This document shows positions 2,340 to 48,116 of a stretch of 64,000 bases of DNA, in pieces. Positions within the stretch are counted from its first letter, which is position 1. Each line of letters begins with the position of its first letter. The notes beneath the pieces are model-generated. The model saw only the letters and a list, made by a program, of their open reading frames with translations. It made no database searches and was not told the origin of the DNA. The position numbers were made by a program, and so were the translations under genes. This DNA comes from Aureispira sp. CCB-E (GTDB lineage Bacteria; Bacteroidota; Bacteroidia; Chitinophagales; Saprospiraceae), in assembly GCF_031326345.1 (NCBI RefSeq), contig NZ_CP133671.1:4340001-4404000 (forward strand). Reading direction: 5' to 3'.

Positions 2340-2420
2340 ATTGCTACTTTAGAATGTTCTAGTTCTGGTATTCTAAAAATAAATTTGATCTTCCTTATGG
2401 ATCAATAGTTAGCTTTGTTA

Positions 2421-3544: not shown

Positions 3545-3732
3545 GGTTTTAATAGGTTTATACTTTTGTAATTTAAACCAAACGGATGCATCACCGTTCG
3601 TTTTTCTATGAAAAATTTTGAATGTAGGACAGAAAAAATAAAATTACTTTAAAACTTGTGATTAAGGTCACATCGTAAAATAGGGATTATTGAAATAATA
3701 AATATTTTTTTTTACAACTTTAATAATTGACA

Positions 3733-4821: not shown

Positions 4822-4928
4822 CTAATCTGCTCTTTTTATTCTCTTTTCAAAATGGACATTCTTACATTGATTGAGTGCAATGTTGTTCCACATTAACTAC
4901 TTAACAAAATTTCAAAATAAATCGCAAC

Positions 4929-14419: not shown

Positions 14420-14437
14420 TACCGTTCATTTATTAAC

Positions 14438-14482
14438 ACAAGGAATGGATACAAAATCCCAACTTTTGTATCCATTCCTTGT
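14438..14482 (+). terminator. Hairpin terminator
   Basis: Perfect 19-bp stem, ACAAGGAATGGATACAAAA (14438-14456) with its complement at 14464-14482 and a 7-nt loop. It lies 18 bp past the stop of the first LVIVD gene. The tail is TA-rich rather than a clean U run. Confidence 0.7.
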
Positions 14483-14738
14483 TATATTATAACTAATCAT
14501 CACTCACTAAAATTTTATAAAATCAAAAAATCAGAATCAATTATTGCTTAACACCTACTAAATCTTATATCCATTTAGCTACTTATCTCTCTAATTGACC
14601 TACCAACAAACAAGTCAAACCCCACATTTTTTCATTTTAACGCTCCACTAAGCCACTCAAAGTCAATGTACGTTCACTTACTACTCTAAATTGACTGTAT
14701 CACTATAGCTTTAGTGGGCTATTCTCAATCTCTACAAT

Positions 14739-18296: not shown

Positions 18297-21200
18297 ATGC
18301 AAAAAATGTTCAACTGGATACTTATCAGTATTCTATTGTTTTTTGTGCAACAGAATAGCATTGCACAAACCAAAACCAACAACTACACCAAAGAATGGGC
18401 AGAAATCAATAAGTTAGAATATGATGGTCTAACTAAGTCTGCCTTAGAAGCTACTCAAAAATTGTACACAAAAATTCAAGGAGATGACCAAAATTCAGCG
18501 CAAACTGGACAAAGTATAAAGGCACTTCTTTTTATTAATAAATACCAAGCTCGATTAGAAGAAGATGGTCTAGTCAAAGCTATTTATCGCTTCGAAGAAG
18601 AAGCCCTAAAAGCACAATCTCCTATCAAGCCCATTTTGCAATCTATGATTGCAGAATTGTATGATCGTTATTTAAATCAACATCTTTATAAATTTCAAAA
18701 CCGAACTGCAACAGAAGAATTTGATCCCAAAGACATTAGAACTTGGGATATTGACCGCATTACCCAAAAGTGTTATGAACTGTATCAATCAAGTGTTCAA
18801 TTTGAAGACACTAAAAATATTTCTATTGATAATTTTGCAGCGATTACCCAACAAGGTGCCAATGTAGAAGGACTTCGACCTACTCTATATGATTTCCTAC
18901 TTCACAGAGCCTTAGATTTTCATCAATCTGATAAATATTATTTAACTAAACCTGCTTATAAGTTTTATTTAGACTCAGAAGAAGATTTTGCTGGTGCTGC
19001 TGAATTTTCTAAACGTAGTTTAACTGCCAAAGATAGTCTTTCTGCTAATTTTCAAGCGCTCATTTTATTTCAAAAAGGCTTGGCTTTCCATTTGGACAAC
19101 CCTAGAGCTTTAATTGATTTGGACTTAAAACGCCTAGAGTTTGTTAAAAATAAATCCATTCGAAACGACAAAGAGATATTGTATATAGAACGTTTGGAAG
19201 CTTTGTTTAAAAAACACAAAGATCAAGCAATTTCTACAGAGATTGCCTATAAAATTGCCATGCATTATCATCGTCAAGGGCAAAAATACCAACCTTCTCC
19301 AACCGAGCAATATCGTTGGGATATAAAAAAGGCATATGAAATTTGCGAAAAAGCGGTAAAAGCTTTCCCTTCGTCTTACGGCGCTTCTCATTGCAAGAAC
19401 TTAATGGCAACGATCAAAAGCAAAAGCATCTCACTAAATGTAGAAAAAGTAAATCCTATCAATCAACCCACTTTAGGCCTGATTACTTACAAAAACCTTT
19501 CTAAACTCTATTTTAGAGCTATCCCAATTACCAAGGCACAATACGATGCTTTTAATAGCAAATACGGAAAGGCTAGGGCTACCTATCTAAAAAATCTTTC
19601 AGGTGCTTATAAATGGTCTAACGAACTCAAGGATGAAGGGGATTATCAACAACACAGCGTTGAATTTAGTATTCCCAAATTAAGAAACGGACGTTACCTC
19701 ATTGCTGCCTCTGCCAATGAAGATTTTTCATACTCAGAAAATGGCATTGCTTATAGTCTTTTTCATGTTTCTAACATCAGTTTTAGCACTCGATCAGAAG
19801 ATGGAAAACAAACATTTTATCTAACAGATAGAGTAACTGGCAAGCCACTTTCTGATGTAAAAGCTGAGTTTTATGTTTCTACCTACAATAGTTTGTTGCG
19901 TCGGTACGAAACTGTCAAAGCTGGCAATGCCCAAAGTGATAAAAATGGTTATTTTCAGACCACCAACTTTAAAGCTAAAAATTCATATTATAACAATTCT
20001 TTTTTTGTTAAACTTACACACGAAGATGACGAGTTGTTCTTAGACGATTCTTATTATAATTATAATAATAGCGAACCCTATGAACAAGAATTTACAACCT
20101 TCTTTTTGGATAGAGCGATTTATAGACCAGGTCAAATTGTCTATTTCAAAGGATTGGTTTTAAAACGTATGACGAATGGAAAAAATCCTAAAATTGTTCC
20201 AAACCAAGCCCGTACCATTGTCTTTTATGATGCCAATTATCAAAAAATAGCCGAAGCAAAAGTTACGACCAACGACTATGGCTCTTTTAATGGTTCTTTC
20301 ACAGCTCCTTCGAGTGGTTTAACAGGGCAGATGCGGATTGAAGACACCCAAAATAATAGCAACAAGTATTTTCGAGTAGAAGAATACAAACGACCTAAAT
20401 TTGAAGTCATTGCATTGCCCGTAAAAGAATCTTTCAAAATAAATGATTCTGTAAAAGTTCAAGGGCACGCCAAAGCTTATGCTGGTAATAATATTGATGG
20501 TGCCAAAGTTCAATATCGTGTTGTAAGAAAGGCTAACTTTCCATACTGGAACTGGCGTTGGGGATGGTATATCCCATTCAATCAAGAGGTTCAAGAAATT
20601 GCTTTTGGAGAAACAACTACCAATGAAAAAGGAGAATATGAAATTACCTTTAAGGCTTTAGCCGATCGTTCTATTCCCAAAGATAAAAACCCGCAATTTA
20701 ACTACACCGTTTATGCTACAGTTACCGATATTACGGGTGAAACGCATACGGTGCAAACAACCGTCAAAGTTGGTTATATTGCTTTAGATATTAGTTTGTC
20801 TATTCCTGAAAATGTAGATAGAGAAAATGCCGAAGCATTTATCATTAACAGTAAAAATTTAAATGCCGAATTTGAAGCTGCTAAAGGTTCTATTATCATC
20901 GAACAGCTACAAACACCTAAAACTGTTTATAGCAATCGTTTTTGGGCTAAGCCTGATTATTATACTATTTTAACCGCAGAGAAATTCCAAGAGAAATTTC
21001 CTCATTATGCTTATAAAAACGAGGACGAGCAACAAAAATGGAACGTTGCCAAAGAAGTTTTAAAAACAGCTTTTGACACAGAAAAATCCAAAGAACTCGA
21101 CCTTAAAAAGATCCAAAAATGGACGCAAGGTGCTTATAAGGTCACTCTAAAAACCCAAGACAAATACGGAAAAGCAATTGAATTGGTTCGATTCTTTACG

Positions 21201-24200
21201 CTTTATAGCTCTAAAGAAAAAACAACTCCTGTCAATAATGCCTTATTTGTAGCCCAAACTTCTTTTACGAAAGAACCTGGGGAAACGGTAACATTGGATT
21301 TTGGTGCGCATAACAAAGCTGCTTATGTTTTATATGAGGTAGAACATGATAATCAAATTGTAAAAAAAGAATGGATTCAACCCAAAGGAAGAACAAAAGT
21401 TGAGATTGCTATAGAAGAAAAACATCGTGGCAATTTACACTTTCACCTAACAAGCACACAAAGCAATCGTTTGTATACTTCGGGAGGAACCATTTATGTT
21501 CCTTGGAGCAATAAAGATTTAAAAGTCGAATACGCTACATTCCGTGACAAGTTATATCCTGGGCAAAAAGAAGAATGGAAAATTAAAATCTCAGGTCATA
21601 AAGGAGATAAAGTTGCGGCTGAATTTTTAGCAGGTATGTATGATGCCTCTTTAGATGCTTTTGCTCCTAACTCTTGGAACATGACTATTCACCCTACAAG
21701 TTATCGCAATATGTCACTTCAAGGAAATCAAAATTTCTACTATGTAGGCTCAAGTTTATTAGGGTCAAACTGGAATGCATACAGTTATGGTCAATCTAGA
21801 ACCTACAAAACATTTAATTGGAATGGATTTTCTTTTTATGAATGGGACTACGCTAGAGGTGGCCGCTATGATGAGGTATTTGAATCTGAAGATGTTGAAG
21901 TTGTGGAAGAAGTGCAATCTGGTGGAATTAGAGAGAAGTCTATGAATCGAGCTCCTGCCCCTCCAACTCCTTCTTCTGCTACCATTGCCGATTTTAGACC
22001 TAAAGATTCTAGTGTCAACGAACAACAATTAGCAACGAACAAGCCCCAAGCACCAGAGCAGGCTCCTGAAGAAGATTTTGGAGATATAAACGTTCGTACC
22101 AACTTAAATGAAACTGTTTTCTTTTATCCTGATTTAATGACCGATAAAGATGGAAATATCATCATTAAATTCACAATGAACGAAGCCTTAACCAAATGGA
22201 AATTCATGCTTTTTGGGTATACCAAGGAGTTGGCTTTTGTCTCTGACACCAAATCTGTCGTCACTCAAAAAGACTTGATGGTTGTTCCCAATGCCCCTCG
22301 ATTCTTTAGAGAAAATGATGAAATTTACTTTACAGCTAAGGTCAGCAACTTGACTGAAAAAGCCATGAAGGGTAAGGCTCAATTACAACTCTTTGATGCG
22401 ATTAGCATGCAACCTATTGATGCTGCTTTTGGTAATACTCAAGCTACGCTTTCTTTTGATGCAAAGGCAGGGCAATCTGCTCCTTTGGCTTGGAAACTCA
22501 ACATTCCTGATGGTTGGAACACACCTGTTACGCATCGAGTCGTTGCTAAAGCGGGTGATTTCTCCGATGGCGAAGAAGCTGCTATTCCTGTGCTGACCAA
22601 TCGCATGTTGGTCACCGAAACACAACCGCTCCCTGTTCGAGGAAAACAAACTAAAAAATTCACCTTTGATAGAATGGCTCAAGTCAGTCAATCAAAAACG
22701 CTCCAACACCATCAACTGACCTTAGAATTCACGCAAAACCCTGCTTGGTATGCCATTCAATCTTTGCCTTATTTGATGGAATATCCTTATGAGTGTACCG
22801 AACAAATTTTCTCTCGTTATTATGCCAACAGTTTGGCTTCTGATGTTGCCAATGCGCATCCCAAGGTGAAACGAGTTTTTGATCAATGGAAAAATATTGA
22901 TACCGATGCTTTAAAAAGTAATTTGGCTAAAAATGAGGAACTTAAATATGCTTTATTAGAAGAAACGCCTTGGGTTTTGGCAGCGCAAAGTGAAGCGACT
23001 CAAAAGAAAAATATTGGGGTGCTTTTTGATCTTAATCGTATGGCGAATGAATTGACAAAAGCTAGGGACAAAATGGCGGATCGTCAATTGGCAAACGGTG
23101 GCTTTAGTTGGATGCCTGGTGGTCGAGATAGCTGGTACATCACCCAATATATTGTAGAAGGCATGGGACATCTAGATAAGTTGGGGGTTAAGGATATTCA
23201 ATCTGATCCTAAGATGGCAAAAATGATTCAACGTGCCGTTGACTACATTGATGTGGAGCTAGCTCGACAGTACAAAGAATTGCTCAAATGGGCAAAACGA
23301 AGCAAGAATGAAAAAGAGTACTTAGAGCAAGATCATCTAGGACAAATGGTCATTCATTATTTTTATGCTAGAACCTTCTTTTTAGAGCAAAAAATTACCA
23401 ATAAAACTACTTTAGAAGCCATCCAGTACTACGAAGGGCAAGCTCTAAAATATTGGAGAAATAAGTCCATGTACATGCAAGGACTGTTAGCCTTAGGTTT
23501 CCACAGAAAAGGAACCGACTTAGAAACGCCTCAAAAAATTGTTGCAGCTGCCAAAGAAAATGCCTTGAATAGCGATGAAATGGGCATGTATTGGAAGTAT
23601 CCATCGGGTTACTTTTGGTATCAACTACCCATCGAAACCCATGCCTTGATGATTGAGGTCTTTGATGTTGTGGCTAAAGATGCTAAGGCAGTAGAAGATT
23701 TGAAAGTTTGGTTGCTAAAAGCCAAGCAGACAACTCATTGGAAAACGACCAAAGCTACTGCCGCCGCTTGTTATGCGTTGCTCATGTCCGGTGACAATTG
23801 GTTGATGGACGACCAAGAAATTGAAATTACTTTGGGCAACAAAAAATTGGATCAATCTCAAATCAAGAAAGAAGCAGGAACGGGGTATTTTAAAACTTCT
23901 TGGAAAGCAGATGAGATTACCAACGATATGGCAAACATCAAGGTCAAAAATCCAAACAATGTCGTGGCTTGGGGAGCTTTGTACTGGCAATACTTCGAGA
24001 ATTTAGACAAGATTACGCATTTCAAAGAAACACCTTTGAAGTTGAATAAGAAACTGTTCAAACAAATTAACACCGATCGAGGTCCTGTCTTAAAACCTAT
24101 TGATAGCCAAACCTTAGAACCTGGAGACTTGATTAAAGTTCGCATTGAATTGATGGTTGATCGAGATATGGAATATGTTCACATGAAGGATATGAGAGCA

Positions 24201-24449
24201 GCCGGTTTAGAACCAACCAATGTCTTGAGTCAGTATAAATACCAAGGAGGTTTGGGCTATTACGAAAGTACTAGAGATGCTTCGACCAACTTCTTCTTTA
24301 GTTATTTATCTAAAGGTACTTATGTCTTTGAATATCCTTTGCGAGTCAATCACAAAGGTGATTTCTCCAATGGAATCACCACCATTCAATGTATGTATGC
24401 CCCTGAATTTACGGCTCACTCTGAGGGCGTTCGAGTCTCTGTTGAGTAA
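18297..24449 (+). CDS. Alpha-2-macroglobulin-like protein, paralogue 1
   Basis: 2050 aa, exported (signal peptide ending NSIAQ; no lipobox). Domains in order: an N-terminal helical, TPR-like region (25-390); MG domains from about 395, with the hallmark FFLDRAIYRPGQIVYFKG near 603 and FRVEEYKRPKFEV near 690; a bait-region domain starting VEYATFRDKLYPGQ near 1080; a disordered acidic/proline-rich bait-like segment (about 1185-1260); the A2M signature VFFYPDLMTDKDGN just after it; and the thioester domain with ECTEQ (Cys1500, Glu1502, Gln1503). Bacterial A2Ms are thought to trap proteases when the bait is cut and to bond them through the thioester. The 3' half is nearly identical to that of paralogue 2. 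No pbpC-type partner lies nearby. Confidence 0.9.
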   Translation: MQKMFNWILISILLFFVQQNSIAQTKTNNYTKEWAEINKLEYDGLTKSALEATQKLYTKIQGDDQNSAQTGQSIKALLFINKYQARLEEDGLVKAIYRFEEEALKAQSPIKPILQSMIAELYDRYLNQHLYKFQNRTATEEFDPKDIRTWDIDRITQKCYELYQSSVQFEDTKNISIDNFAAITQQGANVEGLRPTLYDFLLHRALDFHQSDKYYLTKPAYKFYLDSEEDFAGAAEFSKRSLTAKDSLSANFQALILFQKGLAFHLDNPRALIDLDLKRLEFVKNKSIRNDKEILYIERLEALFKKHKDQAISTEIAYKIAMHYHRQGQKYQPSPTEQYRWDIKKAYEICEKAVKAFPSSYGASHCKNLMATIKSKSISLNVEKVNPINQPTLGLITYKNLSKLYFRAIPITKAQYDAFNSKYGKARATYLKNLSGAYKWSNELKDEGDYQQHSVEFSIPKLRNGRYLIAASANEDFSYSENGIAYSLFHVSNISFSTRSEDGKQTFYLTDRVTGKPLSDVKAEFYVSTYNSLLRRYETVKAGNAQSDKNGYFQTTNFKAKNSYYNNSFFVKLTHEDDELFLDDSYYNYNNSEPYEQEFTTFFLDRAIYRPGQIVYFKGLVLKRMTNGKNPKIVPNQARTIVFYDANYQKIAEAKVTTNDYGSFNGSFTAPSSGLTGQMRIEDTQNNSNKYFRVEEYKRPKFEVIALPVKESFKINDSVKVQGHAKAYAGNNIDGAKVQYRVVRKANFPYWNWRWGWYIPFNQEVQEIAFGETTTNEKGEYEITFKALADRSIPKDKNPQFNYTVYATVTDITGETHTVQTTVKVGYIALDISLSIPENVDRENAEAFIINSKNLNAEFEAAKGSIIIEQLQTPKTVYSNRFWAKPDYYTILTAEKFQEKFPHYAYKNEDEQQKWNVAKEVLKTAFDTEKSKELDLKKIQKWTQGAYKVTLKTQDKYGKAIELVRFFTLYSSKEKTTPVNNALFVAQTSFTKEPGETVTLDFGAHNKAAYVLYEVEHDNQIVKKEWIQPKGRTKVEIAIEEKHRGNLHFHLTSTQSNRLYTSGGTIYVPWSNKDLKVEYATFRDKLYPGQKEEWKIKISGHKGDKVAAEFLAGMYDASLDAFAPNSWNMTIHPTSYRNMSLQGNQNFYYVGSSLLGSNWNAYSYGQSRTYKTFNWNGFSFYEWDYARGGRYDEVFESEDVEVVEEVQSGGIREKSMNRAPAPPTPSSATIADFRPKDSSVNEQQLATNKPQAPEQAPEEDFGDINVRTNLNETVFFYPDLMTDKDGNIIIKFTMNEALTKWKFMLFGYTKELAFVSDTKSVVTQKDLMVVPNAPRFFRENDEIYFTAKVSNLTEKAMKGKAQLQLFDAISMQPIDAAFGNTQATLSFDAKAGQSAPLAWKLNIPDGWNTPVTHRVVAKAGDFSDGEEAAIPVLTNRMLVTETQPLPVRGKQTKKFTFDRMAQVSQSKTLQHHQLTLEFTQNPAWYAIQSLPYLMEYPYECTEQIFSRYYANSLASDVANAHPKVKRVFDQWKNIDTDALKSNLAKNEELKYALLEETPWVLAAQSEATQKKNIGVLFDLNRMANELTKARDKMADRQLANGGFSWMPGGRDSWYITQYIVEGMGHLDKLGVKDIQSDPKMAKMIQRAVDYIDVELARQYKELLKWAKRSKNEKEYLEQDHLGQMVIHYFYARTFFLEQKITNKTTLEAIQYYEGQALKYWRNKSMYMQGLLALGFHRKGTDLETPQKIVAAAKENALNSDEMGMYWKYPSGYFWYQLPIETHALMIEVFDVVAKDAKAVEDLKVWLLKAKQTTHWKTTKATAAACYALLMSGDNWLMDDQEIEITLGNKKLDQSQIKKEAGTGYFKTSWKADEITNDMANIKVKNPNNVVAWGALYWQYFENLDKITHFKETPLKLNKKLFKQINTDRGPVLKPIDSQTLEPGDLIKVRIELMVDRDMEYVHMKDMRAAGLEPTNVLSQYKYQGGLGYYESTRDASTNFFFSYLSKGTYVFEYPLRVNHKGDFSNGITTIQCMYAPEFTAHSEGVRVSVE

Positions 24450-24455
24450 AAGTAA
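22048..24455 (+). repeat. Near-identical 2.4-kb tract, copy 1 (3' half of A2M paralogue 1)
   Basis: This tract matches 28321-30728 base for base at a constant offset of 6273 with no indel. By eye I count 13 substitutions, most of them synonymous, and none between 22220 and 23473. Similarity drops abruptly on the left inside the bait-like segment and on the right 6 bp past the stop codon. Confidence 0.95.
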
Positions 24456-24465
24456 GGCTATTTCT

Positions 24466-24503
24466 ATTAGGCAATTTGGAATATCGTTTTCAAATTGCCT
24501 AAT
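24466..24503 (+). terminator. Hairpin behind A2M paralogue 1
   Basis: 13-bp perfect stem ATTAGGCAATTTG (24466-24478) / CAAATTGCCTAAT (24491-24503) with a 12-nt loop. It lacks a U run, so it may act as a weak terminator or 3' stabiliser. Confidence 0.5.
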
Positions 24504-24557
24504 CAATTAAAATATCAAAATCACACGACCCAATACCTAAACTTAAAAATAAACATT

Positions 24558-27500
24558 ATGCAAAAAAATAAATATTGGGGAATTATCTGTGCCTTTATAA
24601 CGGTTGCATTATCTATCAACCTATTTGCACAAAAACCAAATAAGACAACAATGAATAATTATCCCAAAGCTTGGGAAGCCATCAACAAATTAGAGTATGA
24701 TGGTTTGACCAAGTCTGCACTAGAAGAAACTCAAAAGCTCTATACTCAAATTAAAAAAGACGCTGAAAATCCTGCCCAAACGGCGCAGTTAATCAAAGCC
24801 CTTTTATTTATTAATAAATATCAGGCACGCTTAGAAGAAGATGGTTTGATCAAAGCCATTTATCGTTTTCAAGAAGAAGCAAAAACAGCCACAGCTCCAA
24901 TCAAGCCTATTTTGTTATCGATGGTAGCTGAAATGTACGACCGTTATCTCAACCAACATTTGTACAAGTTTCAAAACCGAACCAAAACAGCAGATTTTAA
25001 ACAAGAAGATATTCGGACTTGGGATGTTGCTAGGATTACAGAAAAATGCTTTGAATTGTACCACCAAAGCATCACTTATGATGAGACCAAAACGTTGGCT
25101 ATAAAAGATTTTGAAGCCATCACCTACAGTTCTTTTAATGTAGAGGGACTACGCCCAACGCTCTATGATTTTCTTGTTCATCGCGCCCTTGATTTTTTTG
25201 AGTCTGAGAAATACTATTTAACGAAACCTGCCTTTAAGTTTTATTTGGATTCTAAAGTACATTTTGCCGATGGGTCAAGTTTTATTAATACAACACTAAA
25301 AGCTAAAGATAGCCTTGCCTCGGAATTTCAAACCTTGCGTTTGTATCAAGAAGCATTAGCCTTTCATGTTGATGACAAAGACCCCAAAGCTTATATTGAT
25401 TTAGAACTTAGACGATTGCGTTATGTTTTAAACAAATCTATTTTAAATGATAAAAACTTACTTTATTTAGATCGTTTAGAAGCACTTCATCAACAGTACA
25501 AAAAACAAGAAGTTGCCGCTGAAATTGCTTTTCAAATTGCTACTTATTATTATAATCAAGGACAAAAATACCAACCTTCTCCAACCGAGCAATATCGTTG
25601 GGATATCAAAAAAGCATACGAAATTTGCCAAAAAGCAATAGAGCAATACCCCAAGTCTTACGGTGCTTCTCACTGCGAAGCTCTAATCAGCAGTATTCAG
25701 CAGAAGAATATGTCTCTGGATGTAGAAAAGATTAATGCGATTGATGCCCCTATCTTAGCTCTGTTAAGTTACAAAAATCTACAAAAAGTATACTTTAGAG
25801 CCATTCCGATTACAAAAGCTCAACACACTACTTTGAATGAAAAGTATGGCGAAAAACGCGCTGCATATTTGCGCAAATTATCCAGCACTTACCAATGGTC
25901 TTTGGAGATTAAAGATGAGGGGGATTATCAAAATCACACCATTGAGTTTGAAATTCCCAAACTACCTAATGGTCGTTATATTATTGCAGTCTCTGCGGAT
26001 GAAGATTTTTCCTACAAAGAAAATGGCATTGCCTATAGTTCTTTCTTTGTATCTAATATGAGTCTTGTAGCGCGTCAAAATGACGGAAATTATAGTTTTT
26101 ATGTAACGAATAGAACAACAGGTATGCCTTTAGAAGGCGTTCGTGCAGAATTTTATGTATCCAAATACAATAGCCTTTTAAGACGTTACGAAACCATTCG
26201 TGCACACACGACTGATAGTGATAAAAATGGTTTAATTAATAGTCAAGGATTACAAACTAAAAATGGTTATTACCAAAGTTCTTATTTCATTAAATTATCC
26301 CAAAAAGAGGATGTTTTATTTCTCGACGACTCTTACTACAACCATGATCCTAATGCTCCTTATCAAAAACAGACAACACATTTCTTTTTGGATAGAGCAA
26401 TTTATCGCCCAGGACAATTGGTCTACTTCAAGGGCTTGGTCTTGAGTCATATGACAGATGGCAAAGATCAAAAAATTGTCCCCAATCAACAACGAATCAT
26501 TACCTTTTACGATGCCAACCGACAAAAAGTAGCCGATGTAACGGTAACCACCAATGAATATGGTTCTTTTAGTGGCTCATTCACTGCTCCTAAAGGTGGC
26601 TTGTTGGGTCAAATGTACTTGGAAGATAGTCATAGCCACAGTACAAAGTATTTTAGAGTTGAAGAATACAAGCGCCCTAAGTTTGAAGTCGTTGCTCTGC
26701 CCATCAAGGAGTCCTACAAAATTGGCGATACGGTTCATGTTCAAGGGCACGCCAAAGCCTATGCAGGTAATAATATTGATGGTGCCAAAGTGCAATATCG
26801 TGTGGTTCGCCAAGCTCGTTTTCCTTATTGGAATTGGCGTTGGGGTTGGTACATTCCGTTTAATAGAGAACAACAAGAGATCACTTTTGGAGAAACAACA
26901 ACCAATGAAAAAGGAGAATATGAAATTGCTTTTGAAGCAATAGCAGATCGCTCTATTCCAAAAGATAAAAATCCTGAATTTCAATATACCGTACATGCTA
27001 CTGTAACCGACATTACAGGAGAGACACATACGACACAATCTACCGTTCGAGTAGGTTATATTGCTTTGGATGTTAGTTTGTCTATCCCCGAAAATGTCAA
27101 CAGAGAAAACACGTCTTCTTTTGGCATTAACACACAAAACCTTAACTATCAATTTGAAGCAGCACAAGGAGAAATTGTCATTGAACAATTGAAAACACCC
27201 AATATTATTTACAAGAATCGTTTGTGGTCTAAACCTGACTATGAAAACATGGACAAAGAAAGCTTTAAGAAAAAGTTTCCTTTGTATGCTTTCAAAAATG
27301 AGGACGAGCCCAACAACTGGTCGGTCTCTAAAGAAGTTTTAAGGACTTCTTTTGATACGAAACAATCAAAAAAATTAGAGCTAAAAAACGTCAACAATTG
27401 GAAACAAGGACGTTATAGAGTTACGCTTAAAACTAAAGATAAATACGGTGCTCCGATTGAGATTCGAAAGTTTTTTACATTGTATAGCAATAAAGCTAAA

Positions 27501-30500
27501 AAAACACCGCTCAACAATGCTTTGTTTCTCGCTCAAAGTTCTTTTACTGCTGAACCAGACACTAGTATCAATATAGATTTTGGCACTTACGAAAAGGCTG
27601 CTTATGTATTGTATGAGATAGAACATGATCATCAAATTATACATCGAGAATGGATTCAACCCAAAGGAAGAATCATTCGTAGTCTTTCAATAGAAGAAAA
27701 ACATCGTGGCAACCTACATTTTCATCTAACAAGCATTCAAGATGGTCGTTTTTACAGCTCTGGAGGAACGATTTATGTTCCTTGGAGCAACAAAGATTTA
27801 AAAGTTGAATACGCTACATTCCGTGACAAACTATATCCTGGTCAAAAAGAAGAATGGAAGATTAAAATTTCTGGTCATAAAGGAGATAAAGTTGCCGCCG
27901 AATTTCTAGCGAGTATGTATGATGCCTCCTTAGATGCTTTTAGTGCTAATTCTTGGTACTTCAATATTCATCCTAGTTCCTACAGGAGTTTAAGTTTACA
28001 AGGTTATAATTCGTTTACTATGGTGGGTTCTGCCTTGCTACAACATGACTGGAATACCTACAAATCGGGTGCATCTAGAACCTACCCTACACTGGATTGG
28101 AATGGTTTTTCTTTCTATGAATATGATTATTCTCGTGGCAATCGGGTTTATAAAAGTGCCAGTCCTAAAGGACGCATGAGATCCAAAAAAGAAGGTTCAA
28201 AATTGGGCGCTCCTATCATGGACAGTTCTGTAGAAATGGAAGAAGTCGAAGCAGATGGTTTTATGAATGCAGAACAAGATAAAACAGTCGTTTCTAACGA
28301 CCAAATTACAGCTAAGCCTGAAGCACCAGAGCAGGCTCCTGAAGAAGATTTTGGAAATATAAACGTTCGTACCAACTTAAATGAAACTGTTTTCTTTTAT
28401 CCTGATTTAATGACCGATAAAGATGGAAATATCATCATTAAATTCACGATGAACGAAGCCTTAACCAAATGGAAATTCATGCTTTTTGGGCATACCAAGG
28501 AGTTGGCTTTTGTCTCTGACACCAAATCTGTCGTCACTCAAAAAGACTTGATGGTTGTTCCCAATGCCCCTCGATTCTTTAGAGAAAATGATGAAATTTA
28601 CTTTACAGCTAAGGTCAGCAACTTGACTGAAAAAGCCATGAAGGGTAAGGCTCAATTACAACTCTTTGATGCGATTAGCATGCAACCTATTGATGCTGCT
28701 TTTGGTAATACTCAAGCTACGCTTTCTTTTGATGCAAAGGCAGGGCAATCTGCTCCTTTGGCTTGGAAACTCAACATTCCTGATGGTTGGAACACACCTG
28801 TTACGCATCGAGTCGTTGCTAAAGCGGGTGATTTCTCCGATGGCGAAGAAGCTGCTATTCCTGTGCTGACCAATCGCATGTTGGTCACCGAAACACAACC
28901 GCTCCCTGTTCGAGGAAAACAAACTAAAAAATTCACCTTTGATAGAATGGCTCAAGTCAGTCAATCAAAAACGCTCCAACACCATCAACTGACCTTAGAA
29001 TTCACGCAAAACCCTGCTTGGTATGCCATTCAATCTTTGCCTTATTTGATGGAATATCCTTATGAGTGTACCGAACAAATTTTCTCTCGTTATTATGCCA
29101 ACAGTTTGGCTTCTGATGTTGCCAATGCGCATCCCAAGGTGAAACGAGTTTTTGATCAATGGAAAAATATTGATACCGATGCTTTAAAAAGTAATTTGGC
29201 TAAAAATGAGGAACTTAAATATGCTTTATTAGAAGAAACGCCTTGGGTTTTGGCAGCGCAAAGTGAAGCGACTCAAAAGAAAAATATTGGGGTGCTTTTT
29301 GATCTTAATCGTATGGCGAATGAATTGACAAAAGCTAGGGACAAAATGGCGGATCGTCAATTGGCAAACGGTGGCTTTAGTTGGATGCCTGGTGGTCGAG
29401 ATAGCTGGTACATCACCCAATATATTGTAGAAGGCATGGGACATCTAGATAAGTTGGGGGTTAAGGATATTCAATCTGATCCTAAGATGGCAAAAATGAT
29501 TCAACGTGCCGTTGACTACATTGATGTGGAGCTAGCTCGACAGTACAAAGAATTGCTCAAATGGGCAAAACGAAGCAAGAATGAAAAAGAGTACTTAGAG
29601 CAAGATCATCTAGGACAAATGGTCATTCATTATTTTTATGCTAGAACCTTCTTTTTAGAGCAAAAAATTACCAATAAAACTACTTTAGAAGCCATCCAGT
29701 ACTACGAAGGGCAAGCTCTAAAATATTGGAGAAATAAGTCCATGTATATGCAAGGACTGTTAGCCTTAGGTTTCCACAGAAAAGGAACCGACTTAGAAAC
29801 GCCTCAAAAGATTGTTGCAGCTGCCAAAGAAAATGCCTTGAATAGCGATGAAATGGGCATGTATTGGAAGTATCCATCGGGTTACTTTTGGTATCAACTG
29901 CCCATCGAAACCCATGCCTTGATGATTGAGGTCTTTGATGTTGTAGCTAAAGATGCTAAGGCGGTAGAAGATTTGAAAGTTTGGTTGCTAAAAGCCAAGC
30001 AGACAACTCATTGGAAAACGACCAAAGCTACTGCCGCCGCTTGTTATGCGTTGCTCATGTCGGGTGATAATTGGTTGATGGACGACCAAGAAATTGAAAT
30101 TACTTTGGGCAACAAAAAATTGGATCAATCTCAAATCAAGAAAGAAGCAGGAACGGGGTATTTTAAAACTTCTTGGAAAGCAGATGAAATTACCAACGAT
30201 ATGGCAAACATCAAGGTCAAAAATCCAAACAATGTCGTGGCTTGGGGAGCTTTGTACTGGCAATACTTCGAGAATTTAGACAAGATTACGCATTTCAAAG
30301 AAACACCTTTGAAGTTGAATAAGAAACTGTTCAAACAAATTAACACCGATCGAGGTCCTGTCTTAAAACCTATTGATAGCCAAACCTTAGAACCTGGAGA
30401 CTTGATTAAAGTTCGCATTGAATTGATGGTTGATCGAGATATGGAATATGTTCACATGAAGGATATGAGAGCAGCCGGTTTAGAACCAACCAATGTCTTG

Positions 30501-30722
30501 AGTCAGTATAAATACCAAGGAGGTTTGGGCTATTACGAAAGTACTAGAGATGCTTCGACCAACTTCTTCTTTAGTTATTTATCTAAAGGTACTTATGTCT
30601 TTGAATATCCTTTGCGAGTCAATCACAAAGGTAATTTCTCCAATGGAATTACCACCATTCAATGTATGTATGCCCCTGAATTTACGGCTCACTCTGAGGG
30701 CGTTCGAGTCTCTGTTGAGTAA
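24558..30722 (+). CDS. Alpha-2-macroglobulin-like protein, paralogue 2
   Basis: 2054 aa from the ATG at 24558, which starts a good signal peptide (cleavage near NLFAQK). An in-frame ATG at 24495 would add a hydrophilic leader and overlap the upstream hairpin, so I reject it. Domain order equals paralogue 1: N-terminal helical region, MG domains (FFLDRAIYRPGQLVYFKG), bait-region domain (VEYATFRDKLYPGQ), a diverged bait-like segment (Lys/Arg-rich then acidic), A2M signature, and thioester ECTEQ with Cys1504. Its N-terminal half is clearly diverged from paralogue 1, while the last 2.4 kb is almost identical. It probably has the same trap mechanism but a different bait and outer surface. Exported, no lipobox. 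Confidence 0.9.
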   Translation: MQKNKYWGIICAFITVALSINLFAQKPNKTTMNNYPKAWEAINKLEYDGLTKSALEETQKLYTQIKKDAENPAQTAQLIKALLFINKYQARLEEDGLIKAIYRFQEEAKTATAPIKPILLSMVAEMYDRYLNQHLYKFQNRTKTADFKQEDIRTWDVARITEKCFELYHQSITYDETKTLAIKDFEAITYSSFNVEGLRPTLYDFLVHRALDFFESEKYYLTKPAFKFYLDSKVHFADGSSFINTTLKAKDSLASEFQTLRLYQEALAFHVDDKDPKAYIDLELRRLRYVLNKSILNDKNLLYLDRLEALHQQYKKQEVAAEIAFQIATYYYNQGQKYQPSPTEQYRWDIKKAYEICQKAIEQYPKSYGASHCEALISSIQQKNMSLDVEKINAIDAPILALLSYKNLQKVYFRAIPITKAQHTTLNEKYGEKRAAYLRKLSSTYQWSLEIKDEGDYQNHTIEFEIPKLPNGRYIIAVSADEDFSYKENGIAYSSFFVSNMSLVARQNDGNYSFYVTNRTTGMPLEGVRAEFYVSKYNSLLRRYETIRAHTTDSDKNGLINSQGLQTKNGYYQSSYFIKLSQKEDVLFLDDSYYNHDPNAPYQKQTTHFFLDRAIYRPGQLVYFKGLVLSHMTDGKDQKIVPNQQRIITFYDANRQKVADVTVTTNEYGSFSGSFTAPKGGLLGQMYLEDSHSHSTKYFRVEEYKRPKFEVVALPIKESYKIGDTVHVQGHAKAYAGNNIDGAKVQYRVVRQARFPYWNWRWGWYIPFNREQQEITFGETTTNEKGEYEIAFEAIADRSIPKDKNPEFQYTVHATVTDITGETHTTQSTVRVGYIALDVSLSIPENVNRENTSSFGINTQNLNYQFEAAQGEIVIEQLKTPNIIYKNRLWSKPDYENMDKESFKKKFPLYAFKNEDEPNNWSVSKEVLRTSFDTKQSKKLELKNVNNWKQGRYRVTLKTKDKYGAPIEIRKFFTLYSNKAKKTPLNNALFLAQSSFTAEPDTSINIDFGTYEKAAYVLYEIEHDHQIIHREWIQPKGRIIRSLSIEEKHRGNLHFHLTSIQDGRFYSSGGTIYVPWSNKDLKVEYATFRDKLYPGQKEEWKIKISGHKGDKVAAEFLASMYDASLDAFSANSWYFNIHPSSYRSLSLQGYNSFTMVGSALLQHDWNTYKSGASRTYPTLDWNGFSFYEYDYSRGNRVYKSASPKGRMRSKKEGSKLGAPIMDSSVEMEEVEADGFMNAEQDKTVVSNDQITAKPEAPEQAPEEDFGNINVRTNLNETVFFYPDLMTDKDGNIIIKFTMNEALTKWKFMLFGHTKELAFVSDTKSVVTQKDLMVVPNAPRFFRENDEIYFTAKVSNLTEKAMKGKAQLQLFDAISMQPIDAAFGNTQATLSFDAKAGQSAPLAWKLNIPDGWNTPVTHRVVAKAGDFSDGEEAAIPVLTNRMLVTETQPLPVRGKQTKKFTFDRMAQVSQSKTLQHHQLTLEFTQNPAWYAIQSLPYLMEYPYECTEQIFSRYYANSLASDVANAHPKVKRVFDQWKNIDTDALKSNLAKNEELKYALLEETPWVLAAQSEATQKKNIGVLFDLNRMANELTKARDKMADRQLANGGFSWMPGGRDSWYITQYIVEGMGHLDKLGVKDIQSDPKMAKMIQRAVDYIDVELARQYKELLKWAKRSKNEKEYLEQDHLGQMVIHYFYARTFFLEQKITNKTTLEAIQYYEGQALKYWRNKSMYMQGLLALGFHRKGTDLETPQKIVAAAKENALNSDEMGMYWKYPSGYFWYQLPIETHALMIEVFDVVAKDAKAVEDLKVWLLKAKQTTHWKTTKATAAACYALLMSGDNWLMDDQEIEITLGNKKLDQSQIKKEAGTGYFKTSWKADEITNDMANIKVKNPNNVVAWGALYWQYFENLDKITHFKETPLKLNKKLFKQINTDRGPVLKPIDSQTLEPGDLIKVRIELMVDRDMEYVHMKDMRAAGLEPTNVLSQYKYQGGLGYYESTRDASTNFFFSYLSKGTYVFEYPLRVNHKGNFSNGITTIQCMYAPEFTAHSEGVRVSVE

Positions 30723-30728
30723 AAGTAA
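28321..30728 (+). repeat. Near-identical 2.4-kb tract, copy 2 (3' half of A2M paralogue 2)
   Basis: Partner of 22048-24455. Only three differences change the protein (Asp/Asn just after the bait, Tyr/His in the G-x-TKEL segment and Asp/Asn near the C-terminus). The remainder are silent. Confidence 0.95.
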
Positions 30729-30751: not shown

Positions 30752-30782
30752 GAAGCACTGGAGAAACACTTTCCAGTGCTTC
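30752..30782 (+). terminator. Hairpin behind A2M paralogue 2
   Basis: 10-bp perfect stem GAAGCACTGG / CCAGTGCTTC with an 11-nt loop, 30 bp after the stop, followed by AATATTATTAT. Unrelated in sequence to the hairpin behind paralogue 1, which marks the end of the duplicated tract. Confidence 0.65.
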
Positions 30783-30817: not shown

Positions 30818-33800
30818 ATGAAACCTTTAATCGTTACGTTATTTTTGCTATCCTTTCTAAACGCCTCTTTTGCACAAACCAACTCTTACACTCAGCAATG
30901 GGCTAAGATTGATTCTTTGGAACATTATAGAGATTTAAAACCTGCTATTCCTTTATTAAATCAATTAATGGAACAATCTCGACACGATACAATTGATTTA
31001 AGTGCTAGAGCTCATTATGTAAAAGCATTTTTGTTCAGAAGTAAATATGAAGTAGAACTAGAGTTAGGACTCCAAGATAGTAGCCATAGAAAGCACCTTT
31101 GTTATTTAACGGTAATTGATGCTTTAAAACCTAAATTACTCGCCCAAATAGACCAAAGCAAAGACTCTATTGTTAATGCCTTACTTTATGCTCATCTAGC
31201 AGATTTATTGATCAAGTATCAACGTGATTTTTATGTTTGTAATAATATCCGCCCTAAAGTTAGAAGGGTTATTTGGAATGCAACAGGCAACTATACCCTA
31301 GATTCTGATCCTGATCCTGTGCAAGATTCTATTGATAATATGCTGCGTCTTTATCAAGAAGAAACCAGCCGTTACCTATTGTCCGCTATAGCATCAACAG
31401 CACCCAAAAATGTTTGGGCACATGATTATGTAGTTTTGCTAGGGCTTGACACCATAACCAATACGCTTCCCAACTACTCGCTCTATGATTTACTGGTTGA
31501 TAATGCGATTGATTACCTTACCCATCAATCGACATATACAACCTATAAAAAGACAAAAAAACACTATCCTTTTCGTGACTCTCTAGCATTCGTTCGTGTA
31601 GAAGATTTTGTTCAGTTTGATTTTACGGTTGCTGATGAGCATGCTAAAAGAATTCAAATCTATAAATTATACCAAGTGCTTCTACGCCATTATTTGAAGC
31701 ACAACCAACGCAATCTACTTGCCAAATTTGACTTGGAGCGAATGGTCTTTGGATTAAATTATAATTATGAAGGAATAAAAAAACACAACAGCTATTACCT
31801 AACTCGCTTGCTAGAAATGGAACAAACATACGCAGATGTTCCTATGGGTACCATGATTAGTTATGAAGTTGCCAAAGACTTATTTAATCCTTATGGTTAT
31901 CATTACCCTCAATTTAGAAACAGTATTTATAATAATCGCTGGAATATAAAAAAGGCGCACGATATCTGTCAAGCAGCCATTCAGCGCTTTCCTAACTCCG
32001 TTGGAGCAAAAAATTGCCAAGCACTGTTGAATCAGATTCTACAAAAAGAATTAAGTCTGTCCATAGAGGCAGTGACTCCAACTCAACAAAATATTTTAGT
32101 TAAAGTTACGAGCAAAAATATTGACAAAGTCTATTGCAAATTATTGCCTTTACCTGACCATTATTACAAGGAAAAAGCCCAGTTAGATTTATTAGCAAAA
32201 CCAACAACCCGCGATTCCATTTGGAGTGCCTATATTGCTAAAATAGCATCTCATTATAGTCATACTTGGGAAGAGCAAATTCCGTTGTCAAATGATTTCA
32301 AAAACCATTCTATTGAAATAAAGGTTCCTGCTCAAAAAGCTGGTGCTTATCTACTTATTATGTCTCACAAAGCTGATTTTTCTTATCAAAAAAATGGATT
32401 GGTTTATGCTTATTTCCAAGTTTCTGATTTGGCATTTATCGCTAGAGCACGCCCTCAAAAAGGACAGTCTATTAATGAGTTTTTTATTGTTAATCGAAAA
32501 AATGGCGCGCCTATTGAGCAAGCAAAAGTTCAGTTTTTAGATAAAGATTGGAAAAAAATTGACACCCAATACAGCAACAACCAAGGGCATCTAACGACTC
32601 ATTTAAACCGTACAAAACCTTACTCCATTCGAATTAAAAAAGGCAAAGACCAATTGTGGCTAGACGATCATCAGCTAAGATACAATGACTACAGTCGCCT
32701 AAAAAAAGGTAAAAAAACCTACCTCTTTACAGACAAACCTATTTATCGACCGGGACAAAACATTCAATACAAAGGCATTCTTACTCAGTTTAACACCGAT
32801 GGCACTAGTGATATTCTACCCCGCCAAAAAACAACCATCCATTTCTATGATGCTAATCAACAAAAAATAGCCAGTCAAATCATTACCACCAATGAATATG
32901 GCGCTTATAGCGGTCAATTTAGAATACCGAATAGTATTTTATTGGGGGAAATGCATCTGCAGGACTCTTTGAGCAGGAATAAGGTTTATTTCGATGTTGA
33001 AGAATACAAAAAACCAACACTGCAAACAAAAGTTGAGAGCTTTGTTGTACTTGGTGAATATAGGGATACTTTGGTTGTAGTCGGAACAGCTAAAACTTTT
33101 TCTGGAATGCCTTTGATGGATGCAAAAATTCAGTATTCTATTCTAAAAGAATATCAAGATACGTTAAAAGTAGCTACTGCTTTGATTGATGCTAAGGGCA
33201 ACTTTTATGTTCGATTGCTAATTGACAAGGAGAAAGATTCCTTGATCTATCAAAGTGATTATTCGTTTCATGGGACAATCGTAGATTTAACTGGCGAAAC
33301 CATTGAATGTTCCACGCACACTTCACAAAAAAATCTCAACTATTTCCTTTCAACTTCAAATGATTCTTCTATAGATGTTGTTTTTGCCCATGAATCCAAT
33401 ATTGTTCGTCATTCGACTTCAACTATAGCCAACTACAAAGCCACTAAACAACAAGGTTCTTCTACTTCTAAGCAGCCTGTTTCAATTCAAACTTATTTAA
33501 TTATAGAGCAATTAAGTACTCCCAAGCATCCTTATATCAATAGGCTGTGGAGTATCCCTGATACAACGATCACTACTGTCGCAGCATTTGAGAAAGATTT
33601 CCCTCTCTACGAAGCTTATGACAACCAACGCCACAAAGCCAATTGGGTCGTATTGGATACTATTTATAAAGACCAAGTCCATGCGGCATCCAAAGAATGG
33701 CAACTGAATACCTTAAATTGGGCGAAGGGCTTTTATCGCATTCGCTTTATTTATCAAGACAGCAGCCTTGTCTTAGCTCAAGAAGAGATTCGTTATTTTA

Positions 33801-36800
33801 ACCTACAAGATACCTTCCCTTCTCCTACTTACAATGTTGCTTTATTGCATTATAATAAAGATAGTTTTTTGACTGGAGAACCCCAAGATATCGTTCTACT
33901 GGAGGTTGGTTCTTACTTTGACGATGCCCATATTCTGCTAGAACTAGAGAACTATGAAAAAGTACACGAATACCGTTGGTTACAACCTCAAGCCTATCAA
34001 AAAGTTCCTATTGTACTTAATGAGAAACATCGAGGTAATTTGCACTACCGATTGCTGTCTATTTATAATAATCGTTTTCATGATTTTGAAAATTACATTC
34101 AGGTACCTTGGAGCAATAAAGATTTAACCATAGAATATTTGTCCTTTAGAGACAATTTACTACCTGGCCAAGAAGAAGAATGGACTATAAAAATAACTAG
34201 CCCTAATGGAGAGGCGGTTGCCAGTGAAATACTAGCTTCTATGTACGATAGTTCCTTAGATTATCTAACAAGCCATTCTTGGCATTTCGATGTGTATCAA
34301 AATTCTTATTACAGAAGTTTAGAGGATTGGTCTAGCAAAGATAATATCAAACAAAGAACATTTAAGGTATCTCAATCGCCCAACTGGCAGCTTCCTACGC
34401 TCAAATCCTACGCCATTGTTGATCCCAATATCAATGCAACTGCTTCTTTTCTAAAATTCAATCAATTTTGGTATGCTCATCCTCCAACGCCGAAGGACGC
34501 AGATGGTGATGGCATTCCGAATGAACAAGATTTAGAGCCTAATTCTTTGCCTTATTATCCTGTTGATGCCCATGGTCGAAATATTATTATTCCTGTTTTG
34601 GAATTGGCGGAAAAGGAAATCGCTACTATGGAGCGACAGGAAAGTTATATACTCGTAGATGGTATTCCATGCCTAAGCGTTGTCAATGATATGGATTTTA
34701 ACCTTTACGATTATGGAGGAATTCCCGTCGAGTATGGTGATCCCAATGATGCTATATTGCTCTCTCCTAGCAATAATGTAGGAGGTGCAACTCGAAACAG
34801 TTTGTCTGCTAACTTCAACAACGTCAAAATACGCTCCGACTTAAAAGAATCTGTTTTCTTCTACCCGCATCTAAATACAGATAGTACAGGTAGTATTAGC
34901 ATTAAATTTAAGATGAGTGAGGCGCTTTCAAGCTGGAAATTCAGGCTCTTGGCGCATACAAAAGACTTAAAAACTACCCTTAGTCACAAAGAACTGGTCA
35001 CAAAAAAAAAGTTAATGGTCATGCCTAACACGCCCCGTTTTCTGCGTCAAGGGGATATGGTTGACATCAGCACCAAAGTTGCTAATCTAAGCCAAGAGCC
35101 ACTAGCAGGAAAAGTGACGTTACAGCTTTTTGATGCGCTGACCAATGCTCCTATTGATGTCCAGTTTGAGCATATCAATACCATTCAATCATTTGATTTA
35201 AAACAAGAAGCTGTTACCAAAGTTCACTGGACCTTAAAAGTTCCGCAGGACTGGACTAACCCTGTTTTGTATAAGATAATTGCAAAGGCTGATAATTTTT
35301 CAGATGGCGAACAAAATCAGTTGCCTGTTATTAGTAATAAAACCTTGGTTTTGGAAAGTTTGCCGATTTTGGCGCATGGACAGCAAAAACAAAACGTTGT
35401 CTTTAAAGGTTTGAAGCACAACGCTTCTACTACCTTACAACAACACCGATTTACTTTAGAGATGAGCACAAACCCTGCTTGGGAAGCTCTTTTATCATTA
35501 CCTTATTTGATAGAATATCCTTATGAGTGTTCAGAACAATTGTTTTCAAGGTTTTATGCGAATAGTTTGGCTACGAAAATTATTACTGAAAACCCTAAAC
35601 TCGAAAAACTATTTGAAACTTGGGCAGCAAAAGATGTTCCTAGTTCTAGTTTGGATAAATTGCTGAATAATCCCACTTTGAAATCGATTTTACTAGAAGA
35701 AACGCCTTGGGTGCTCCAATCGAATTCAAGTGCTGAGCGACAAAAACACTTGGGGCAGCTGTTAAAACTAAGTCGTATGGCTAAAGAATTTCAAAAAGTC
35801 CGCCACCAATTGCTAGAACGTCAATCGGAAGATGGTGGTTTTTCTTGGTTTAAGGGAGGGCATTCCAGTCCATTTATAACACAGTATATTCTTAGTGGGT
35901 TGGCAAAATTAGAACAATTGGGTGCTAATGCATGGTCTAAAAACAAAGCGATTCAACAAATGCTGAAAAAAGCATTGGATTATACAGACCAACAAATCAT
36001 CCAACAGTACCAGCAGTTAGCACATTATTATCAAAACAACAAACAAGTTAAACCAGATTCTGATGCCATGCGCTTGGAAGATAATCTGAGTCCTTCTGCC
36101 ATTCAATATTTATATACAAAAAGTTTCTTTTGGGATGCTACAAGTATTCAAAAAGACTCTGCTTTGGCTCAAAGCATTCAGTACTATTTGGAACAAGCTA
36201 AGTTGCATTGGCGCAATAAATCTATTTATCAACAAGGCTTACTGGCTTTGGCTGCTCATCGCATCCGTCCTCAAAGTAAATATGCGCAAATGATTGCCGA
36301 CAGCTTAAAAAATCAAGCTATTATAGATTCAACACAAGGGATGTATTGGACGCAACCATGGGGATTTTATTCGCATCAATTGCCAATAGAAACGCAAGCC
36401 ATTATGATTGAGCTATTTGAAGAAGTAGCCAAAGACGATGCTGCTGTCTACTTACTAAAGCTTTGGTTATTGCGCCAGAAAAAAGGAACTGCTTGGGCTA
36501 GTACAAAAGCGACTACTACCGCTTGTTACGCTTTGCTGATGTCTGGCAACAATTGGTTAGACCATTCAATTGGTTTGGACATTCAAATTGGAAAAGAATC
36601 CTTTTCGTCCACAACTATGGATCAAGAATTAGGAACAGGTTATTTTCAAAAAACTTGGCCTTCTGACTCGATCAACAAAGACATGGCAATCATAAGCATT
36701 ACCAATAAAAATAATACGCCTGCTTTGGGTGCTGCTTATTGGCAATACTTTGAGCAATTTGAAAACATCCACACTTTTCAAGAAACACCTCTAAAGATAA

Positions 36801-45927: not shown

Positions 45928-46033
45928 GGAACTTTTTTTTCTTATTTTGTATTATAATAATTTGCTCATTAACGATATTAACACTCAAACAACCTTACTT
46001 TACTCTAGCTAAACTAAACCTTATCAAAATGAC
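45928..46033 (+). repeat. 106-bp direct repeat, copy 1
   Basis: Identical to 48011-48116 except one A/G change near its middle (CAAACAACC against CAAACGACC). It starts GGAACTTTTTTTTCTT and ends TTATCAAAATGAC. It lies beyond the 3' end of the T9SS gene at 46168-47601. Noncoding as far as I can tell. Confidence 0.9.
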
Positions 46034-48010: not shown

Positions 48011-48116
48011 GGAACTTTTTTTTCTTATTTTGTATTATAATAATTTGCTCATTAACGATATTAACACTCAAACGACCTTACTTTACTCTAGCTAAACTAA
48101 ACCTTATCAAAATGAC
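48011..48116 (+). repeat. 106-bp direct repeat, copy 2
   Basis: Copy of 45928-46033 with a single substitution, 2.08 kb away in the same orientation. It ends about 120 bp before the SDR gene. Confidence 0.9.

What the first reader, a model, noticed from the sequence alone, without database searches (positions are those of the whole stretch)
22048..30728. Two A2M genes share a near-identical 3' half whose boundary lies at the end of the bait-like segment
Seen directly: 22048-24455 and 28321-30728 align without indels at offset 6273. I count 13 mismatches in about 2.4 kb, with about 1.25 kb (22220-23473) identical. Left of the boundary the bait-like segments are unalignable and the N-terminal halves are clearly diverged. 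The right boundary is 6 bp after the stop codon, and the two 3' hairpins are unrelated. The simplest reading is recent gene conversion, or replacement of one 3' half by the other, keeping a common thioester/trap half while bait and outer domains diverge. That would be a modular way to diversify protease-trap specificity, comparable to antigenic cassette systems.
Basis: seen in the sequence. Interest (0 to 1): 0.85.

Follow-up and report, generated by a model that had tools for sequence, protein, structure and literature searches.

The report
Two protease traps share one tail
Two neighbouring genes for protease-trap proteins in a bacterium close to Aureispira keep different front halves but repeatedly overwrite each other's back half, so that two sensors stay attached to one common trapping engine, much as in the mammalian immune receptors TLR1 and TLR6.

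Summary
The genes (A, B) encode thioester alpha-2-macroglobulins whose front halves differ by 31% and whose baits barely align. It is neither an assembly artefact nor one recent event. Strain CCB-QB1 (same species) and two other genomes of the genus carry orthologous A and B. Front halves form an A clade and a B clade (support 100), so the duplication predates these species; 3' halves go by genome. Between two strains the 3' half has 24 sites homogenised within strains and 1 gene-specific; the front half has 0 and 1133. Within-genome dS of the 3' half is 0.02-0.06 in three whole arrays, against 1.3-2.0 between species. The edge lies at the end of the disordered bait, beside the segment that in E. 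coli A2M docks on the C-terminal domain after cleavage (extrapolated). Best reading: recurrent gene conversion confined mainly to the trap half. The antigenic-cassette analogy is not supported: no silent copies were found. TLR1/TLR6 is the closer precedent. New variant of a known kind; a selective role is plausible, not shown.

The parts
18297..24449 (+). Gene A, alpha-2-macroglobulin family protein, 2050 aa; signal peptide without lipobox cysteine (by eye)
   Evidence: A2M, MG2, bMG10 Pfam domains above cut-off
24558..30722 (+). Gene B, paralogue of A, 2054 aa if it starts at ATG 24558 (mechanical ORF starts at TTG 24495)
22048..24455 (+). Homogenised 3' half, copy in gene A (codon 1251 to 6 bp after the stop)
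28321..30728 (+). Homogenised 3' half, copy in gene B
22219..23473 (+). 1255-bp stretch identical to 28492-29746
18297..21644 (+). Gene-specific front half of A: helical region of about 350 aa, then beta domains including MG2
21645..22047 (+). Bait-like disordered segment of A, gene-specific, variable in length between species
27924..28320 (+). Bait-like segment of B (start approximate, taken from the offset of the flanking match)
22050..22100 (+). Likely equivalent of E. coli A2M residues 947-963, the tail that docks on the C-terminal MG domain after bait cleavage (ungapped extrapolation)
22794..22805 (+). CTEQ thioester motif in A (in B at 29067-29078); gene C has CSEQ
   Evidence: aligned to CLEQ of E. 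coli A2M
24469..24500 (+). Hairpin after gene A, sequence not shared with the one after gene B
   Evidence: -16 kcal/mol, z -4.5
30752..30782 (+). Hairpin after gene B, sequence not shared with the one after gene A
   Evidence: -21.2 kcal/mol, z -6.2
30818..37204 (+). Gene C, third A2M; its 3' half is 57-58% identical to A and B, so it is outside the exchange

Best explanation
A and B arose by duplication before the sampled species of the genus split. Since then, homologous recombination between the direct repeats (gene conversion or unequal exchange) has kept overwriting the 3' half of one copy with the other, independently in each lineage (shown by sequence comparison). The tract is bounded on the right by unrelated intergenic DNA and on the left by the hypervariable bait (edges shown; that loss of homology sets them is inferred). 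The product is two proteins with different front halves and baits on one near-identical engine: post-bait tail, the following macroglobulin domains, the thioester domain with CTEQ, and the C-terminal MG10 domain (fold match shown; protease trapping inferred from the family). The likely effect is that a protease that cuts either bait fires the same thioester trap, and that changes in the engine spread to both genes (inferred).
For: Site patterns in two strains of one species: 3' half 24 strain-specific against 1 gene-specific of 2400 sites, front half 0 against 1133 of 3708 (Fisher p 6e-49, but sites within one tract are not independent). dS of A against B in the 3' half is 0.021, 0.029 and 0.061 in the three genomes with both whole genes, and 1.6-1.8 in the front half; orthologues of different species have 3'-half dS of 1.34-2.05. 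Trees: front halves give an A clade (100/99) and a B clade (100/100), and G3_A with G3_B together is rejected, p 2e-94. 3' halves group G3_A with G3_B and all four window-species copies together; holding W_A, Q_A and G3_A together is rejected, p 6e-52, and W_A with Q_A, p 6e-9. In the fragmented MAG G006 the front halves go by gene, the B contig ends after 117 bp identical to A, and two 3'-end variants differ at 5 of 299 bp. Controls: a near-tandem A2M pair in another genus (G105) is 60-89% identical per block in the 3' half with no jump; other tandem paralogues in the window are 39-69% per block or 71-82% in short matches.
Against: Outside the window's species the support comes from two genomes, one of them a fragmented MAG. 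In G006 the only comparable 3' stretch (49 synonymous sites) has dS 0.18, because its first 81 bp after the bait hold 6 differences. In the 3'-half tree the pair W_A, W_B is not resolved as a pair inside its species group, and G6_B and G4_A were left out as partial. In a first front-half tree with gene C as outgroup G3_B did not join the B group clearly. Between the two strains the 3' half is more diverged (1.54 and 1.71%) than the front halves (0.72 and 0.27%), which conversion between two copies alone does not predict. G3 shows a patch of lower dS in the front half at residues 701-850, so exchange is not strictly confined to the 3' half. Function was not tested.
Confidence: 0.88

Rival explanations
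1. Neutral concerted evolution (a rival only for the why): the same exchange, but nothing is selected. Conversion persists where the copies stayed similar and stopped where front halves and bait had drifted apart.
For: The edges coincide with loss of homology on both sides. In the front half A and B share at most 44 (window, CCB-QB1), 49 (G003) and 31 (G006) identical bases in a row, against 1255 in the window's 3' half. The 3' half is also the more conserved half between species.
Against: The left edge falls near the same junction in three lineages (residue about 1251 in the window, 1255 in G003, between 1255 and 1293 in G006), and the front halves are conserved across species as two separate lineages. 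Neither excludes neutrality.
Confidence: 0.5
2. Assembly collapse or misjoin made one 3' half appear twice.
For: Near-identical repeats are a usual cause of such errors. MAG G001 has a single gene with an A-type front half and the downstream DNA that follows B elsewhere, which may be a collapse in that assembly.
Against: The two copies differ at 13 of 2408 sites here, 18 of 2400 in CCB-QB1 and 43 of 2400 in G003, each with its own set. Three assemblies (2, 180 and 3 contigs) hold the whole A-B array.
Confidence: 0.01
3. Separate recent duplications in each species, followed by replacement of one front half.
For: The 3' halves alone would look like this.
Against: Front halves of A and of B are orthologous across species with support 100, so both genes existed before the split.
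Confidence: 0.02
4. Import of the 3' half from other strains into both copies, rather than exchange between A and B, keeps them alike.
For: Excess divergence of the 3' half between strains, with strain-specific codons clustered at 1389-1395 and 1520-1714.
Against: The same import would have to hit both copies each time; one import followed by A-B conversion is simpler.
Confidence: 0.06
5. A cassette system that swaps front halves and baits to vary the trap.
For: Direct repeats could allow loss or gain of a front half; MAG G001 has an A front half followed by B-type downstream DNA and no B front half was found in it.
Against: No further copies of the 3' half or of either front half in the genome beyond A, B and short weak matches in gene C. 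Front halves follow stable gene lineages. G001 is a MAG in 560 contigs and may be a collapse.
Confidence: 0.05

Closest known systems
Mammalian TLR1/TLR6 tandem paralogues (PMC2077338; abstract seen)
   Same: Tandem immune-type paralogues whose N-terminal parts follow the gene and whose C-terminal region is homogenised by independent conversions in each species at nearly the same place
   Different: Animal receptors with LRR and TIR domains; here bacterial thioester traps, a 2.4-kb tract and an edge at a bait
Anopheles TEP1/TEP5/TEP6 gene conversion (PMC2576239; abstract and passages seen)
   Same: Same protein superfamily (thioester proteins), exchange between clustered loci, touching the thioester half
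   Different: There conversion makes a chimera and separates TEP1 alleles; here it homogenises the thioester half
Bacterial type I A2M of E. coli and Salmonella (PMC4498604, passages and section 10 seen; PMC5764988, passages seen)
   Same: Macroglobulin domains, disordered bait, CXEQ thioester; fold match E 7e-27 to Salmonella A2M 4u48
   Different: About 2050 aa with an N-terminal helical region; no lipobox seen; a tandem pair rather than a gene next to PBP1c
Domain-limited concerted evolution in prokaryotes: mtrA-1/mtrA-2 (PMC4632066) and RF1/RF2 domain 3 (PMC4530459), abstracts and openings seen; 26-gene survey (PMC6053082), abstract and one passage seen
   Same: One domain of a paralogue pair homogenised while another differs, repeatedly or over long times
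   Different: Metabolic and translation genes; the main text of the survey does not contain the word macroglobulin; its supplements were not seen

Membership tests
Bacterial type I alpha-2-macroglobulin | A2M and bMG10 domains above the curated cut-off | tested here: met
   3 of 3 proteins; no NCBIfam model matched any of the 3
Bacterial type I alpha-2-macroglobulin | CXEQ thioester motif in a helical domain | tested here: met
   CTEQ in A and B, CSEQ in C; helical surroundings in the model; aligned to CLEQ of E. coli A2M
Bacterial type I alpha-2-macroglobulin | Disordered bait before the thioester half | tested here: met
   residues 1117-1258 under pLDDT 50; cleavage not tested
Bacterial type I alpha-2-macroglobulin | Lipoprotein anchor and PBP1c neighbour, as in E. 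coli (a feature of those members, not of the whole family) | tested here: not met
   no lipobox cysteine in the signal peptides (by eye); no penicillin-binding or transglycosylase domain among 16 other ORFs scanned, both direct neighbours included, of 32 other ORFs of at least 150 aa
Bacterial type I alpha-2-macroglobulin | Covalent protease trapping | not testable with these tools
   needs purified protein
Concerted evolution by gene conversion | Paralogues within a genome closer than orthologues, in the converted part only | tested here: met
Concerted evolution by gene conversion | Duplication older than the species split | tested here: met
   A clade and B clade at support 100
Antigenic-cassette (silent copy) system | Store of silent variable cassettes recombining into an expressed locus | tested here: not met
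   DNA searches of the own genome with the 3' half and with each front half found only A, B and short matches in gene C; 40 first-look candidates were scored in each (of 56, 107 and 72)

The most novel reading that the evidence does not exclude
The unit of conversion is the functional unit: latch tail, thioester domain and the C-terminal docking domain must match one another, and selection keeps this engine identical in two traps whose sensors are free to specialise. Recombination between the direct repeats could also delete or add front halves, as the A-front/B-downstream gene of MAG G001 may show.
Probability: 0.35. Interest if true: 0.72.

Novelty: new variant of a known kind. Interest (0 to 1): 0.57.

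Why it matters
It would be a bacterial, thioester-protein counterpart of TLR1/TLR6: an innate-immunity-like pair in which exchange holds the effector half constant while the recognition half diverges. It also gives a natural comparison of two baits on an almost identical engine, in a genus known (recalled) for preying on other bacteria, so the open question of what bacterial A2M baits recognise becomes testable with a built-in control.

Tried and rejected
Assembly artefact: rejected, three assemblies hold the whole array with different residual differences. Single recent event: rejected by trees and dS. Gene C as donor: rejected, 57-58%. Silent front halves: none found.

GC-biased conversion: inconclusive. 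GC3 rises from front half to 3' half by 0.08-0.14 in the A and B copies of the window, CCB-QB1, G003 and G006 (A only), but also by 0.095 in the single gene of G5; by 0.063 in G1, 0.01-0.02 in G2 and G7 and about 0.04 in gene C.

Not exhaustive: the family search (398 genomes) scored at most two candidates per genome and its match list was cut; the named-genome scan kept 79 loci from 207 relatives. Among the 124 loci held a second whole A2M ORF stood beside the first only in L046 (CCB-QB1); L001, L002, L006, L009 and L036 are pieces of the window's or G003's array, and L071 and L091 are one gene split in two ORFs. That script reported one missing file name (P0003); hits of gene C show that its query file still held the third protein. 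Structure alignments took 45 of 63 and 43 of 66 available relatives besides the window, picked by hand without a rule.

Literature: no paper in the held library joined Aureispira with alpha-2-macroglobulin, the phrase bacterial alpha-2-macroglobulin with gene conversion, or alpha-2-macroglobulin with Bacteroidetes, thioester and bait. Macroglobulin with concerted evolution and bacterial gave 7 papers, none on bacterial A2M by title. Alpha-2-macroglobulin with Bacteroidota gave 10, none on bacterial A2M by title. Two wider searches listed 15 of 17 and 10 of 59.
Full report
What was checked. The genome (7.39 Mb, 2 contigs, 99.93% complete) holds this 3' half twice; gene C resembles it only in pieces. 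The three genes encode A2M-family proteins of 2050, 2054 (from the ATG at 24558) and 2128 aa with MG2, A2M and bMG10 domains, with CTEQ (A, B) and CSEQ (C) thioester motifs. NCBIfam gave no match for any of the three.

Where it comes from. Locus L046, 99% identical to gene A over residues 1-2050, is Aureispira sp. CCB-QB1 (NZ_JHBV01000044.1). Its contig length equals that of contig C44 of G156, the genome the tool places in the window's species. Seven more genomes of the genus were searched. The window's own strain has no name here.

Same pattern elsewhere. G003 (3 contigs) has an A-B tandem at G003:C1:2039345-2051775. MAG G006 has an A gene, the front half of a B gene and a C gene on three contigs; the A and B contigs break inside the 3' half and the C contig begins shortly before gene C. 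Identity of A against B in 100-codon blocks is 62-80% before the boundary and 98-100% after it in the window; 57-91% and 96-99% in G003; 56-82% and 98% (56 codons) in G006. In G006 the first 81 bp from VRTNL hold 6 differences and the next 117 bp none.

Concerted evolution, not one event. In a four-way comparison of the window strain and CCB-QB1, gene-specific sites (A differs from B the same way in both strains) number 1133 of 3708 in the front half and 1 of 2400 in the 3' half; strain-specific homogenised sites (A equals B in each strain, strains differ) number 0 and 24 (Fisher p 6e-49, though sites in one tract are not independent). dS between A and B is 0.021 (window), 0.029 (CCB-QB1) and 0.061 (G003) in the 3' half and 1.6-1.8 in the front half; in G006 the short 3' stretch that can be compared (49 synonymous sites) gives 0.18. 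Orthologues of different species differ by dS 1.34-2.05 in the 3' half, near saturation. The tree of front halves (13 rows) has an A clade of 5 and a B clade of 4, support 100/99 and 100/100, and keeps both when residues 695-859 are left out. In an earlier tree with gene C as outgroup, G3_B did not join the B group clearly. The tree of 3' halves (13 rows; G6_B and G4_A left out as partial) groups G3_A with G3_B, Q_A with Q_B, and the four window-species copies together; W_A and W_B are not resolved as a pair. Holding W_A, Q_A and G3_A together is rejected (p 6e-52), and W_A with Q_A too (p 6e-9).

Controls. G105, another genus, has two A2M genes about 1.4 kb apart; their 3' half is 60-89% identical per block with no jump. 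Tandem paralogues elsewhere in the window are 39-69% per 50-codon block (12020 and 14739) or 71-82% in short matches (genes in 1287-5978). So neither tandem A2M as such nor every tandem pair here is homogenised. Two dispersed A2M genes of G221 are 58-80% before and 70-84% after the bait, again with no jump to near identity. I found no other homogenised pair outside this genus, but the survey was not exhaustive. DNA searches of the own genome with each front half found no copies beyond A, B and two short matches in gene C.

What lies on each side. A model of residues 1085-2050 (46 sequences, mean pLDDT 73.2) leaves residues 1117-1258 at very low confidence and folds most of the rest; Foldseek's best match is Salmonella A2M (E 7e-27), with E. 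coli A2M (rank 6) and TEP1 (rank 11). TM-scores of the 50 listed matches are low (0.17-0.33), so domains match but their arrangement is not modelled. A model of residues 24-1130 (44 sequences, mean pLDDT 86.0) shows about 350 helical residues and then beta domains, best match E. coli A2M (E 4e-24). A profile search puts the start of the post-bait match at residue 730 of the human A2M chain (whole-sequence E 0.0005; no single stretch passed on its own).

Why the edge is interesting. In elastase-cleaved E. coli A2M, residues 947-963 of the bait domain become ordered and bind the C-terminal MG domain at a surface that overlaps the one that holds the thioester domain (PMC4498604, section 10). The profile comparison with E. 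coli A2M (probability 75) starts at its residue 976, matched to gene A residue 1281. Carried back without gaps, 947-963 fall on residues 1252-1268, just inside the shared half that begins at 1251. This crosses a gap-prone disordered stretch and is inference. If right, the converted unit holds both the latch and its docking site.

Mechanism and limits. Recombination between direct repeats explains homogenisation; the edges are where homology ends. The longest exact run in the front half is 44 bp (window) and 49 bp (G003), against 1255 bp in the window's 3' half. In G003 three 50-codon windows at residues 701-850 have pS 0.36, 0.21 and 0.45, lower than most of the front half, probably an older exchange. 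MAG G001 has one gene with an A-type front half followed by the hairpin and gene start that follow B in the window (and resemble the DNA before gene C in G006), and no B front half was found in it: a real deletion between repeats or a collapse, which I cannot tell apart.

Unexplained. Between the two strains the 3' half differs by 1.54% (A) and 1.71% (B), the front halves by 0.72% and 0.27%. The excess peaks at 22400-23200 in A and at the matching place in B; the start of gene C (31200-31600) is raised too. Import of foreign alleles followed by spread to the second copy would explain the first part.

Comparison. The nearest precedent in design is TLR1/TLR6 (PMC2077338, abstract). In the same superfamily, Anopheles TEP1 shows conversion that separates alleles rather than homogenising genes (PMC2576239, passages). 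Domain-limited concerted evolution is known in prokaryotes (PMC4632066, PMC4530459, abstracts and openings). That Aureispira preys by ixotrophy is recalled; a search for both words only listed papers. Verdict: a real, recurrent, well-bounded case; not seen in print for bacterial A2M in the searches; function untested.

Noticed in passing
L128:1630-8174 (CCB-QB1 gene C), compare window 31100-31243: In CCB-QB1 a 143-bp stretch of gene C is present twice in tandem, which breaks the reading frame near the N-terminus; real, or a sequencing error.
   Followed up: partly
window 22000-23600 and 28400-29600: The homogenised half is several times more diverged between two strains than most flanking DNA, at the same place in both copies; the start of gene C is raised too.
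   Followed up: partly
L007:847-7316 (MAG G001): A single A2M gene with A-type front half but B-type downstream DNA: deletion between direct repeats or assembly collapse.
   Followed up: partly
L037:645-6791 and L036:11343-17573 (G003 genes A and B), residues 701-850: A second, weaker patch of low synonymous divergence in the front half, suggesting an older conversion tract.
   Followed up: partly
window 45928-46033 and 48011-48116: A 106-bp direct repeat, 99% identical, 2083 bp apart, on both sides of an ORF with a T9SS sorting tail; only these two copies found in the genome.
   Followed up: partly
window 12020-17075: Two diverged tandem genes with LVIVD repeats and carboxypeptidase-regulatory domains (T9SS tail above cut-off in the first only) precede the A2M genes; similar-looking ORFs precede gene A in G003 and G006.
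   Followed up: no
window 43473-45779: A secreted-looking trypsin-like peptidase with MAM domain and T9SS sorting tail lies some 6 kb after the A2M cluster; whether it meets the traps is unknown.
   Followed up: no
G000, seven PF00207 places: The genome has seven A2M-domain places in all; four lie away from this cluster in shorter ORFs with lower scores.
   Followed up: no
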